64,000 nt of DNA from Thermoplasmatales archaeon. GTDB taxonomy: Archaea; Thermoplasmatota; Thermoplasmata; Thermoplasmatales; Thermoplasmataceae. The stretch spans positions 1,225,966-1,289,965 of the forward strand of contig CP060531.1 in assembly GCA_016806715.1 (NCBI GenBank). Direction: 5' to 3'. The position numbers and the translations under genes are program-made. Under the pieces are notes generated by a model that worked only from the letters and a program-made list of their open reading frames with translations, made no database searches and was not told the DNA's origin. Positions 24,670 to 53,450 of this stretch are shown in pieces (within the stretch, counting starts at the first letter, position 1; every line of letters begins with the position of its first letter).

Positions 24670-24831
24670 ATTGAATTGCATTAAAGAATTCTGTGAGTTC
24701 ATTCCATCTAACTTACATTTTCACTTTTATAGCATGAAATTGTATCAAAAGGTATTTAAATCTGTTTTAAATACTAAGTATGAAAAAACTACTTACTGCA
24801 TCATTAAATTTGTGCAGTGCAGTCTTCGGTC

Positions 24832-24861
24832 AACTACTCCTCGCTAAAGCTTCGGAGCTTG
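24832..24861 (-). repeat. TnpB element end; 30-base repeat shared with 52587-52616
   Basis: On the minus strand this is the end of the tnpB gene plus its right end. The top-strand sequence from AACTACTCC to GAGCTTG is identical over 30 bases to 52587-52616, where a dead tnpB ends in the same way; outside it the two diverge at once. In the TnpB orientation, CTCCGAAGCTTTAGCGAGGAG can fold partly and is the expected 3' end of the omega-RNA, with the guide beginning in the flanking DNA at about 24831 and running to lower coordinates. Confidence 0.6.
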
Positions 24862-25950
24862 CAGCTGGGCATTCTTAGGCTCACCCGCTACGATGGGCTG
24901 ATTGACTGCAGCCCTGTTCCTGATGTTGAGGGAAGCAATGAAATCTGCTTCTCCCTCAAGACCACAGGATATGCATTTGAATTTAGGTCGTTCTGGCCTG
25001 TTCCTCCTGTCAATGGTGTGGCAGGACGGACATTCCCTGCTGGTATTTTCTGGAGTAACTGGGATTACAGGGACGCCCATTATCCTGGCCTTATATTCAA
25101 TGAATGACCTGAGCTGGTGGAAAGCCCAGGAGTTATGCTGGTATCGCTCTCTCTTTCTAACGGTTGTCCTCTCCCTGAGGCCTTTGAGATTTTCAATGGC
25201 TACAGCAGAAGAGGTGCCTTTGGCTTTCTGCACAATCTCCTTCGATATCACATGGTTTGTGTTCTTGGCGAACCTGCCCTCCTTTCCGGAGAGCTTCTTG
25301 AGATGCCGTCTGGCAGACGTGGTGCCTGCAGACTGGAGGTCGACCCTGAGGGCAGAGTATCTCTTCCTGACTTTTTCTATTTTATCGCCGGAATAGTATT
25401 TGCCGGTGGAATCAACGGCGATGTTCACCCTCCCCAGATCAACGCCCATAATGTCTTTCGGTTCTATTTGCGGTTCCACTGGGACATCGATAGCGACCAT
25501 CAGGTAGAAAAGCTTATTTTTTCGTACAAGATCACTCTGCCCCCTCATTCTCCTGAATGGTATCTCACCGTATTTCCCAATGGTTATGTGTATTCTTATC
25601 CTGCCTTGAACCGTGTTGATGCTGACCTCATCCATGCCCTTGAAGCTCAGTATCCTCTGATCGTATACGATGCTCCCGTACTCACGGAATTCATGGAATA
25701 TTGCCTTATCCGTTTTATAGGTCTCCACGACCTTTGCAATGACCCTGATCGCAAGCTGGGAAGCCAGTCCGAATTTATCCCTTATGTCATGGTATACTAT
25801 TTTCTGCAGGAGTACCTTGTTGAATATTTTCCGGTTCCACGCTATTTCAGAGACAAAATTACATGCATCGTTAAATTGCCTGAACGTATCGGTGAGAATT
25901 ACTTTCTGATTGTCGTCAGGGAGGAGCTTGATCTGAAGGGTCTTGAGCAC
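24844..25950 (-). CDS. tnpB: TnpB, RNA-guided nuclease of an IS200/IS605-type element
   Basis: A 368-residue, apparently intact TnpB. The RuvC acidic residues are D171 (MGVDLGRVNIAVDS), E253 (VAIENLKGLRERT) and D336 (EADFIASLNIRN); the last motif deviates from the usual A-D-x-N-A-A but keeps the Asp. Zinc cysteines are C307/C310 and C326/C329. TnpB proteins are omega-RNA-guided DNA nucleases that maintain their element. No TnpA transposase is adjacent, so this is a TnpB-only copy. The stop is 12 bases inside a 30-base end shared with the dead copy at 52.6 kb. It is inserted just ahead of the pirin gene. Confidence 0.9.
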   Translation of the reverse strand: MLKTLQIKLLPDDNQKVILTDTFRQFNDACNFVSEIAWNRKIFNKVLLQKIVYHDIRDKFGLASQLAIRVIAKVVETYKTDKAIFHEFREYGSIVYDQRILSFKGMDEVSINTVQGRIRIHITIGKYGEIPFRRMRGQSDLVRKNKLFYLMVAIDVPVEPQIEPKDIMGVDLGRVNIAVDSTGKYYSGDKIEKVRKRYSALRVDLQSAGTTSARRHLKKLSGKEGRFAKNTNHVISKEIVQKAKGTSSAVAIENLKGLRERTTVRKRERYQHNSWAFHQLRSFIEYKARIMGVPVIPVTPENTSRECPSCHTIDRRNRPERPKFKCISCGLEGEADFIASLNIRNRAAVNQPIVAGEPKNAQLQAPKL

Positions 25951-25994
25951 AATATTGATATATTAATTCAATATAAAAGAGTGTCGCAATTACT

Positions 25995-26014
25995 CTCCAC
26001 CCTGAAGGTTGGAG
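25995..26014. repeat. Imperfect hairpin, possible left end of the TnpB element
   Basis: CTCCA at 25995-25999 pairs with TGGAG at 26010-26014, with one internal mismatch and two further GC pairs around a TGAA loop. IS200/IS605 elements carry subterminal hairpins, and this one is 45 bases ahead of the tnpB start. It also overlaps the region just upstream of pirin. Confidence 0.35.
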
Positions 26015-26041
26015 CTTCATTGCAATGGGAATGTGATAGTT

Positions 26042-26965
26042 ATGAAAGACATAAAGTCAAAAAATGTTGAATACATATATGCAGGAACAACCACAACCGA
26101 TGGGGCGGGAGTGAAACTCAAGAGAATATTTGGAGGTCATGAGTCTGCAGTAAGGACCGATCCATTTCTTCTCCTTGATCACTTTGGATCAAACAAGCCT
26201 GAGGAATACCTTTCAGGTTTTCCGTGGCATCCTCATAGAGGTATAGAGACCGTTACTTATTTACTGGAGGGAAAGGTCGAACATCAGGACAGTGAAGGCA
26301 ACAGGGGTACCATATATCCATCGGATATACAATGGATGTCTGCTGCAAGTGGCATTTTCCATCAGGAAATGCCAAAACCCCTGGACGACAAGGACCCAAA
26401 GGAGCTTCTAAGGACAACAGGCATGACCACCAGCTCCGTAGGGTTCCAGCTATGGATAAATATGCCTGCAAAAATAAAGATGTCCACTCCAATGTATAAT
26501 GGCATTCAAGGGAAAACAACCCCTGTCGTCGACGATGGTAATGGTTCTACTGTGAAGATGGTCGCAGGAGAATACCTTGGGACAGAGGGGTCGCTTAAGG
26601 GAAGGAGTGAGGTTGACCCTACATATCTGGATGTAAGGATGGACAGGGAAACTGAATTCACTTTTCCGGTAAAAACAGGTTATACCTCAATAATTTACAG
26701 TATCGCAGGAGAGGTAATGACCGGATCAACAGGAGAAAAATTACTTCCAGGATCTGCTGCGGTGTTTGGCAACGATGGAGACGCCGTGTCAGTGTCTTCC
26801 AGGGACAGCGGTGGCAGGTTCATTTTCCTCTCAGGTAAACCCTTGAGGGAGCCAATTTACTGGTACGGGCCAATGGTGATGAACACCCGTGAGCAGATAA
26901 ACGAGGCACTGAGAGACCTACAGTCAGGCTCTTTCATAAGGGATAAGAATCCAATCTTTCAGTGA
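26042..26965 (+). CDS. Pirin family protein
   Basis: From ATG 26042 (307 residues); an in-frame TTG at 26009 would add a leader with no domain content. This is a bicupin protein. The metal-binding motif is WHPHRGIETVTYLLEGKVEHQDS (His, His, His and Glu ligands), followed by GDIQWMSAASGIFHQEMP as in pirins. The second cupin (about 170-300) lacks metal ligands, as usual. Pirins bind Fe(II) and some act as quercetinases or redox-sensing co-regulators; no partner is indicated here. A TnpB element ends within about 90 bases upstream and may have displaced the original promoter. Confidence 0.92.
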   Translation: MKDIKSKNVEYIYAGTTTTDGAGVKLKRIFGGHESAVRTDPFLLLDHFGSNKPEEYLSGFPWHPHRGIETVTYLLEGKVEHQDSEGNRGTIYPSDIQWMSAASGIFHQEMPKPLDDKDPKELLRTTGMTTSSVGFQLWINMPAKIKMSTPMYNGIQGKTTPVVDDGNGSTVKMVAGEYLGTEGSLKGRSEVDPTYLDVRMDRETEFTFPVKTGYTSIIYSIAGEVMTGSTGEKLLPGSAAVFGNDGDAVSVSSRDSGGRFIFLSGKPLREPIYWYGPMVMNTREQINEALRDLQSGSFIRDKNPIFQ

Positions 26966-52031: not shown

Positions 52032-52586
52032 AATGATCAGTTTTAAACTTTACCCCAGCTTAACGGACGTTAATCACATTTCATAACTCACTGACCCGCT
52101 GGGGAATTTTCAACCATCCTCTGATCGGACGTTCACTGCAAGGTGGCGCACCATATACTGCATCCGAAGCCCATGGGATTGGTGAATTATAGTTCCGCGT
52201 CGTCATAGGTGATCATGAATCACACTTACTAATTAACGGAACGGGAGCTAATTGAAATATAGCTTTTAACCTTTTACTCTGTAATGTCTCTTCTAATTTG
52301 CAGGAATATTCACACAGAAATCTGGTAAATCATTCTCAGGTTGTTGCTACTCACGATTCTCTTGACTCAAAGAAACCTTAAACCAGAAGCTCCGGAGATT
52401 TATTGGTGTTTATCTTCATTGAATAATCAATCTCTTATACGGTGGAACAGGATTAACACGGAGTTCGAACTTGCTTAGCCTCTCATGATATCATTGCAGT
52501 ACAAACCCAAAGAATTAGTACGGTAACACTTGAACCCAATTAGACCTGATTAAAGGATGAATGAGGAATGGACAATTGTAGGGGGA
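52032..52586. other. Intergenic stretch, nothing recognised
   Basis: A 555-base gap between the protease gene and the dead TnpB element. No gene, tRNA or long repeat was seen. Its right edge adjoins the shared 30-base TnpB end (52587). Confidence 0.45.
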
Positions 52587-52616
52587 AACTACTCCTCGCT
52601 AAAGCTTCGGAGCTTG
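52587..52616 (-). repeat. End of dead TnpB element; 30-base repeat shared with 24832-24861
   Basis: Identical over 30 bases to 24832-24861, running from AACTACTCC to GAGCTTG on the top strand. In TnpB orientation it includes the last codons, the TAG (52599-52601) and GAGGAGTAGTT, the predicted omega-RNA 3' end. Flanks differ immediately (TCCCCCTACAATTG here against GACCGAAGACTGC at the other copy). Confidence 0.6.
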
Positions 52617-53450
52617 TTGCTGTTTTCCCCTCCTACTTGTGAGTAGAGATTCATTGAACCGCGACGATTGGCCGGTTGACAACAACCTGAAGTACTCAGA
52701 TTTACCAAGTAACCCAATGTTTCTCGCGGCATTGAGGTCTGCATGCAAATCGAAACCACAGTTCAGGCAGTGGAGCCTCGATTCTTTTTCTGTTGTTTTT
52801 ATCTAAGAAACCACCCTTTGAGCATTTCTGGGTCTGTATTTGGGGGTCAATGTAAACAACGAACTTGTTCCTGTCCTGTGCTTTGTATTCTATGAACTGT
52901 TCCCGTTGAAAAGGCCACTATGAACCAAGCGGTCCGTTGAAACGCTTGCCGTAATTCTTCATCTTTGATGGCCTTAATTCTTCAAGTGCAAACAGGTCGA
53001 AAGGAAGTTCGACTGCACTCTTTTATATCATGTGATTTGTGTCCTACACGAACTGTCTCTCTCTTCCGCCCAGTTCCCTTAATTTTTTGTGTGCGGAACG
53101 AGTGCCTGCGTGCTGCATTTTCTTCCTGTTGTACCTGTTTCTCCCCTTGACGCTTTTCAGGTGCTTGCTGTTGAAAAACCTGTTGTTTGACAATACCGCT
53201 ATATTCTTGATTCCCCTGTCTATTCCTGCAACGTTTATCTCTCAGTTTTCTTCCTGTATAACCTCCTGATCAGGCAATTTCACCCGAACCATTACGAACA
53301 TTTTCCAGTGCTGTACATCAATGGACAGCTGTGCGTTAGTGTACTCCCCTCTGTATCTATCTTTTAATGGAGACCTGGTGACAGGGAATACTAAGTACGA
53401 TGTTGGCAGTCCTAGGGAGCCAATTTTTTCGTTCTTTGAGGATCAGCAGA
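52599..53450 (-). pseudogene. tnpB: Dead TnpB copy with stops and frameshifts
   Basis: Read leftward, segments of a TnpB appear. VAGIDRGIKNIAVLSNNRFF holds the first RuvC Asp; LFALEEL holds the Glu; KCSKGGFLDKNN is half of the zinc motif; and HCLNCGFDLHADLNAARNIG holds the last zinc Cys pair and the third Asp. The final residues QQQAPKL resemble the end of the intact copy (QAPKL). At least two in-frame stops and two frameshifts break it, and the N-terminal third is missing. The element type matches the intact copy at 24.8 kb, though the two TnpBs are not close relatives. Confidence 0.8.

What the first reader, a model, noticed from the sequence alone, without database searches (positions are those of the whole stretch)
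24832..25950. Intact TnpB whose 3' end is shared exactly with a dead copy 27.7 kb away
Thirty bases covering the last TnpB codons, the stop and GAGGAGTAGTT are identical at 24832-24861 and 52587-52616, while flanks differ at once and the proteins are otherwise divergent. That pattern defines the element end and the likely omega-RNA 3' boundary, and gives a predicted guide from flanking DNA beginning GACCGAAGACTGC for the live copy and TCCCCCTACAATTG for the dead one. The strong conservation of an RNA-end motif between divergent TnpBs suggests trans-recognition of ends.
Basis: partly seen in the sequence, partly recalled or inferred. Interest (0 to 1): 0.55.

Follow-up and report, generated by a model that had tools for sequence, protein, structure and literature searches.

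The report
RNA-only partners of TnpB transposons
The shared 30 bases are the ordinary right end and guide-RNA tail of a small jumping gene, but in this genome and many related archaea the same tail also ends tiny protein-less elements that carry a conserved structured RNA and look like guide RNAs for a nuclease encoded elsewhere.

Summary
The 30-base identity is real. It is the right end (RE) and omega-RNA 3' end of IS200/IS605-family tnpB elements, a known arrangement. Empty sites for the live copy and for a second element of the genome put the end after GTAGTTGAC, so the live element is 24829-26032 (-) and its predicted guide starts CGAAGACTGC. The missing GAC matters: terminal GUUGAC pairs with GUCAAY near the start of the RNA core. 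The dead copy has GTTTCC, which breaks this stem.

The unexpected part lies outside the window. Of 7 near-copies of this end in the genome, two belong to tnpB-less mini-elements. Both kinds recur in related archaea. Family 1 (about 340-405 bp) has a conserved, covarying ~200-nt RNA domain fused to a ~95-nt omega core: 70 model matches in 35 of 117 genomes of the order, plus 6 genomes outside it. Its ends and target motif match TnpB clade B; its core best matches the resident clade-B core in 5 of 6 testable genomes. Family 2 matches clade A, the live TnpB's. They look like trans-guide elements; expression and function are untested.

The parts
24829..26032 (-). Live tnpB-only IS200/IS605-family element, 1204 bp, LE at 26032, RE end at 24829
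   Evidence: Alignment of the joined flanks with three same-genus genomes that lack the insertion; 91%-identical second copy also 1204 bp
24844..25950 (-). tnpB, 368 aa, GTG start, intact; RuvC motifs GVDLG (D171), AIENLKG (E253), ADFIASLN (D336), zinc-ribbon CPSC/CISC
   Evidence: (Cas12f1-like_TNB 6e-18; OrfB_IS605 6.8e-7, just under its cut-off)
24829..24906 (-). omega-RNA core, 78 nt: GUCAAU...GUUGAC closing stem, inner stem, RE hairpin
   Evidence: minimum-energy fold (z -1.69); covariation in 10 clade A copies
24837..24857 (-). RE hairpin CTCC...GGAG
24832..24861 (-).
24809..24828 (-). Predicted guide, CGAAGACTGCACTGCACAAA (flanking DNA, 20 nt shown)
   Evidence: position follows from the empty-site boundary; guide use is inferred from the family
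25995..26014 (-). LE hairpin CTCC...GGAG
26033..26036 (-). Target/TAM-like motif TCAC on the element strand, left of the LE
   Evidence: TCAC precedes the LE in L001, L002 and L024 and is present in the empty sites
26042..26965 (+). pirin-family gene; element inserted 9 nt before its ATG
52587..52616 (-). Same 30 bases in the dead copy; next bases TCC instead of GAC (52584-52586)
52629..53418 (-). Dead clade B tnpB remnant (frameshifts, 4 in-frame stops)

Best explanation
Shown by sequence: the live copy is a tnpB-only IS200/IS605-family element (24829-26032, -) inserted after TCAC, without target duplication, 9 nt upstream of a pirin gene. Its last 78 nt fold into an omega-RNA core whose terminal GUUGAC pairs with GUCAAU, leaving flanking DNA CGAAGACTGC... 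as the guide. The identical 30 bases in the dead copy are the same right end on a different TnpB clade (B). The same kind of end is worn by RNA-only mini-elements of two families. Family 1 (clade-B-like LE, TTTAT motif, clade-B omega core) and family 2 (clade-A-like LE, TCAC motif, clade-A-like core) each carry about 200 nt of conserved non-coding sequence in place of tnpB. Inferred: TnpA encoded elsewhere mobilises all of them through the subterminal hairpins, and the mini-elements are transcribed as trans-acting guide RNAs for the TnpB of the matching clade, so that TnpB cuts the empty donor site and the mini-element is kept. The role of the extra 5' RNA domain is unknown; my guess is that it replaces the tnpB message as the RNA's own folding and stability module.
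For: Empty sites: live copy, mini-element L023 against its paralogue in L003. Core fold and covariation. Family 1 RNA: 20 copies, 76 hand-drawn pairs, 90.1% of cells paired, 34 pairs with changes on both sides against 9-15 when slid by 1-3 columns, 92 against 9-22 cells. The guide-proximal stem GUCAAC/GUUGAC is kept in the tnpB-less copies, with A-U to G-C changes in 4 of 20; the corresponding -6..-2 nt of ISDra2 omega-RNA pair far upstream in the pseudoknot seen in the TnpB structure (PMC10097598, passages). That pairing serves a guide scaffold and is not needed for hairpin binding by TnpA (inference). No protein-coding frame is kept in the family 1 RNA; in 45 loci with flanks no tnpA and no tnpB was found beyond 21-31-aa matches, nearly all of them the core's own codons. 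Ends and TTTAT motif shared with clade B tnpB elements. Own-genome core match: mean identity 0.92 against 0.73, own best in 5 of 6; no other pairing of the six genomes did as well (27 of 20000 permutations, the floor). Clade B TnpB genomes hold the RNA in 17 of 20, against 35 of 117 overall.
Against: No expression data. 18 of the 35 genomes with family 1 RNA have no clade B TnpB at E 1e-40; many are incomplete, but G008, G095 and G014 are 97-99% complete. In the window's own genome the clade B TnpBs are dead, so family 1 copies there would need the clade A TnpB or be relics. Host matching and co-occurrence were not corrected for phylogeny, and vertical descent alone would give both. Energies are unremarkable: z -1.69 live core, -1.56 L125, 0.10 L301. 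38 of 70 family 1 matches score under 100 bits and mostly lack a clear RE, i.e. are decayed copies. The hand structure was drawn from two of the sequences it was counted on, which inflates the paired percentage.
Confidence: 0.6

Rival explanations
1. Plain right-end homology only: the 30 bases are conserved because TnpA binds the RE hairpin. The mini-elements are ordinary non-autonomous (PATE-like) elements mobilised by TnpA, and their omega core is an inherited remnant with no guide function.
For: TnpA is known to bind the subterminal hairpins (PMC10278001, section 13 read). LE and RE hairpins resemble each other and the TnpA-bearing elements L003-L006 have a near-identical hairpin. Four intact Y1 tnpA genes are present. 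PATEs of this kind are known in haloarchaea (PMC3119063, passages).
Against: The GUCAAC/GUUGAC stem and the inner stem stay paired in 90% or more of cells in the tnpB-less copies, with two-sided changes; TnpA should not need them. The ~200-nt 5' domain is conserved and covaries, which junk would not.
Confidence: 0.25
2. The mini-element RNA has a function of its own (for example a ribozyme, an intron-like RNA as in IStrons, or a regulatory RNA), and the element end is only its vehicle.
For: The 5' domain is conserved across families of the class and is not derived from tnpB.
Against: No Rfam family at gathering score nor a convincing one at E up to 5 (best HEARO, 23.6 bits against a cut-off of 83). 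Of 15 family 1 junctions read, most are not spanned by a long frame once flanks are joined, so splicing out of genes is not the rule (two of 15 have 142-143-codon frames across the junction and stay open). A separate function would not explain the matched omega core.
Confidence: 0.15

Closest known systems
IS200/IS605-family tnpB element with omega-RNA/reRNA (ISDra2 TnpB; AmaTnpB)
   Same: RE marks the 3' end of the scaffold, hairpin within 10 nt of the guide, guide from flanking DNA, TAM equals target motif, 3'-terminal nucleotides pair far upstream
   Different: Shorter core (78-95 nt against 116 nt in ISDra2); motifs TCAC (clade A) and TTTAT (clade B) read from insertion sites, not assayed; no tnpA in the element
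PATEs (palindrome-associated transposable elements) of Haloquadratum, PMC3119063
   Same: Non-coding, subterminal palindromes, no inverted repeats or target duplication, ends like IS605-type elements
   Different: The mini-elements here keep an omega core and carry a conserved covarying RNA domain not derived from tnpB; the passages read describe PATE interiors only as transposase-free or deletion products
RAGATH-18 reRNAs of IS607 TnpB (PMC11061315)
   Same: Conserved structured guide-RNA scaffold; 36% of them not beside a TnpB in that paper's counts (10,258 of 16,029 are)
   Different: Other transposon family; the Rfam library, searched whole, gave no such hit here
IStrons (group I intron plus IS605/IS607 end), PMC4227781, seen in search listing only
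   Same: Structured RNA between LE and RE, protein genes sometimes absent (recalled)
   Different: No group I intron signal; most insertions not inside genes

Membership tests
IS200/IS605-family tnpB-only element (window 24829-26032) | TnpB with RuvC triad and zinc ribbon | tested here: met
   Pfam PF07282 6e-18, PF01385 6.8e-7 (30.0 bits, cut-off 30.5); D171/E253/D336 by motif; PDB relatives Cas12f/TnpB
IS200/IS605-family tnpB-only element (window 24829-26032) | Subterminal hairpins at both ends, no inverted repeats | tested here: met
IS200/IS605-family tnpB-only element (window 24829-26032) | Insertion next to a short fixed motif, no target duplication | tested here: met
   empty sites in 3 of 3 same-genus genomes; left flank aligned with gaps
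IS200/IS605-family tnpB-only element (window 24829-26032) | Mobilised by a Y1 TnpA | not testable with these tools
   none in the element; 4 intact Y1 genes elsewhere in the genome
TnpB omega-RNA | RE hairpin within 10 nt of the scaffold 3' end | tested here: met
TnpB omega-RNA | 3'-terminal nucleotides pair with an upstream segment | tested here: met
   GUCAAY/GUUGAC; lost in the dead copy
TnpB omega-RNA | Transcribed and bound by TnpB with flank-derived guide | not testable with these tools
   no RNA data
PATE (family 1 and 2 mini-elements) | Non-coding, subterminal palindromes, IS605-like ends, no duplication | tested here: met
   coding test done for family 1 only; one empty site (L023/L003)
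IStron | Group I intron | tested here: not met
   Rfam on sampled copies
RAGATH-18 reRNA | Match to the Rfam family | tested here: not met

The most novel reading that the evidence does not exclude
Thermoplasmata archaea carry two families of protein-less IS605-type elements that encode long, conserved guide RNAs. Each is a clade-specific omega-RNA scaffold fused to a previously undescribed ~200-nt RNA domain, takes its guide from wherever it has inserted, and uses the TnpB of a co-resident element in trans: parasites of both TnpA and TnpB.
Probability: 0.45. Interest if true: 0.8.

Novelty: new variant of a known kind. Interest (0 to 1): 0.6.

Why it matters
If true, TnpB guide RNA is a shared good: elements without the nuclease gene can keep themselves in the genome by borrowing it. 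That would be a natural trans-acting guide system of IS605 type, a stepping stone toward separate guide and effector genes as in CRISPR-Cas12, and it makes the question of cis-preference of TnpB directly testable. The 5' RNA domain is a candidate new RNA family in its own right.

Tried and rejected
Sequence identity of the two ends as evidence of trans-recognition: weak, since hairpin sequences differ freely between clades and genomes while the fold stays. Mini-elements as known RNAs: no Rfam family. Mini-elements as coding: minus-strand frames of 90 or more codons are open in several family 1 copies but not in one frame. Intron/IStron reading: not supported. Homology of the family 2 interior to the family 1 domain: not shown (5.3 bits on L024); some short motifs look alike by eye. 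Family 1 in the window: none (one 17-nt hit of 6.5 bits). Family 1 in viral contigs: the 22-base pattern gave 0. In genome contigs it gave 22 stretches, 21 in Thermoplasmatota records; the one in a Microthrix record scores only 18 bits.

Rows dropped. Alignment A1 uses 20 of 42 loci read (near-identical, truncated or decayed copies left out; L144 left out for a lost RE). Host matching used 6 genomes (7 without the RE part). Of 31 mini loci, cores were read in 23; the 8 decayed ones include both-clade genomes G017, G035, G097, G022 and G052, so those are untested. The clade B tnpB of G001 was cut by a contig end and left out; that of G110 was truncated and used only in the seven-genome test. 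Family 1 loci outside the order: 10 read from 5 of 6 genomes; 7 show core plus terminus, 3 run off the contig after the core start. In the clade B motif count by eye L207 and L075 were not counted, being truncated or broken.

Literature: ten searches, one library; nothing describing RNA-only IS605 elements with an omega core was listed, but subscription papers are not held. Altae-Tran 2021 (stand-alone IscB omega-RNAs) and Meers 2023 (TnpB retention) are recalled, not seen.

Full report
Observation. The 30 bases are identical at the stated places and no match is expected by chance. The live ORF (24844-25950, -) is an intact TnpB with the RuvC residues and a zinc ribbon; its nearest solved relatives are Cas12f and TnpB chains. 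The dead copy belongs to another TnpB clade, here called B (61% to a relative, 4 internal stops; 29% to the live one).

Where the element really ends. The genome (1.96 Mb, one contig) holds 14 TnpB-like places, 4 Y1 tnpA genes, each beside a tnpB by coordinates, and 7 sites like the 29-base end within 3 mismatches. Five of the seven continue with GAC; the dead copy has TCC and one site (L025) has GGC. Three same-genus genomes carry the pirin gene without the insertion, and the alignment closes at ...TTCG|GTGATA..., placing the element at 24829-26032, after TCAC on its strand, with no duplication (the left flank aligns with gaps). A second empty site, of L023 in a paralogous stretch of L003, gives the same RE end. 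So the predicted guide is CGAAGACTGCACTGC..., not GACCGAAGACTGC.

Why the last three bases matter. The 78-nt tail of the live copy folds with GUCAAU paired to the terminal GUUGAC, an inner stem, and the RE hairpin (z -1.69). In ten clade A copies from eight genomes 94.1% of cells pair, with two-sided changes in 6 of 21 pairs against 0-2 when slid. The TnpB structure paper reports that nucleotides -6 to -2 of the ISDra2 omega-RNA pair far upstream (PMC10097598, passages). Nety et al. report the RE hairpin as the one feature conserved in almost all TnpB scaffolds, and that TnpA binds it too (PMC10278001, section 13 read). The dead copy has lost this stem.

RNA-only elements, family 1. Of the 7 ends in the genome, L023 and L024 sit on elements without tnpB. 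L023's interior recurs in other genera and ends at each genome's own RE. Aligned (20 copies, 312 columns) and counted on a hand-drawn structure: 76 pairs, 90.1% paired, 34 pairs with changes on both sides (9-15 when slid by 1-3 columns), 92 such cells (9-22). G-U outnumbers A-C 81 to 46 in the 5' domain and 28 to 10 in the core, in favour of an RNA of this strand. A covariance model of the 5' domain alone (200 positions) finds 70 matches in 35 of 117 genomes of the order and in 14 of 33 genera. In a 400-genome draw of the class it finds 37 genomes, 6 of them outside the order. Ten loci from five of those six were read: seven show the omega core and a GTTGAC or GCTGAC terminus with matching upstream partner; three run off the contig. 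Of the 32 matches of 100 bits or more in the order, 29 are followed by an RE motif; one of the others is cut by the contig end. The strict LE-plus-motif pattern was met in 16 of these 32, 28 of which have at least 100 nt upstream. Element length is 343-404 nt in 15 copies measured; the motif left of the LE is TTTAT in 11 of them and GTTAT, CTTAT or ATTAT in the other 4.

Link to TnpB clade B. Clade B tnpB elements have the same two LE types, the same core and RE; read by eye in 13 copies, TTTAT precedes the LE in 9, GTTAT or CTTAT in 2, neither in 2. The shared sequence begins at GTCAACCAGCCAATCG, just where the tnpB coding part gives way to the 5' domain. In six genomes with both, the mini-element core is most like the resident clade B core in five (rank 1 of 16) and fourth in one; own mean 0.92, other 0.73, and no other assignment of the six reached the observed mean (27 of 20000 shuffles equal the floor). 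In G007 both have lost the same apical hairpin, and in G013 the cores are identical. Clade B genomes (identity 48% or more) hold the RNA in 17 of 20 (hypergeometric 2.5e-8, not corrected for relatedness). Against this, 18 of 35 RNA genomes have no such TnpB.

Family 2. L024 (320 bp, motif GTCAC) has a clade-A-like LE and core. Matches of 75-83% reach into its interior in G102, G111, G012, G078 and G028 (mean column identity 86% in 5 copies), with the motif TCAC left of the LE in 4 of 5 measured copies and TTCAT in the fifth. Its interior is not shown to be homologous to family 1 and its folding energy is ordinary (z 0.10).

Mechanism, graded. Shown: element boundaries, omega-core fold with covariation, kept fold in tnpB-less copies, conserved 5' domain, matched ends. 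Inferred: mobilisation by TnpA in trans; transcription; use as guide by TnpB in trans; retention by cutting the empty site, as proposed for TnpB in PMC8612924 (passages). Unknown: the work of the 5' domain.

Known or new. Non-coding IS605 derivatives (PATEs) are known (PMC3119063, passages) and conserved reRNAs away from a TnpB exist for IS607 (PMC11061315, passages). I found no description of these RNA elements in ten literature searches and no Rfam family.

Noticed in passing
L025 (G000:C1:1175912-1178940), 1456-1524: Remnant of a family 2-like 3' end whose RE-like site stops about 290 nt before an archaeal RNase P RNA gene (1818-2130).
   Followed up: partly
L003-L006 (own genome): Four tnpA+tnpB elements, 86-96% alike in pairs; TTTAC left of the LE in the three with a clear left end (L004-L006), RE GTATGTCAG; hairpins close to those of the tnpB-only elements.
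   Followed up: partly
window 26030-26045: The live element sits 9 nt before the pirin start codon and replaces its upstream region; relatives have the gene without it.
   Followed up: partly
L010 and L011 (own genome): A 2640-bp stretch including a third type of tnpB is duplicated at 97% identity.
   Followed up: no
L012, L013, L014 (own genome): A 1.9-kb tnpB-bearing repeat in three copies at 89-91%; 104-129 nt of one end (90-92% identity) also lies near L009 without that tnpB.
   Followed up: no
G052 contigs (e.g. L067-L096): G052 has 22 sites like this RE, many within 200 nt of contig ends, as if a high-copy element broke the assembly.
   Followed up: no
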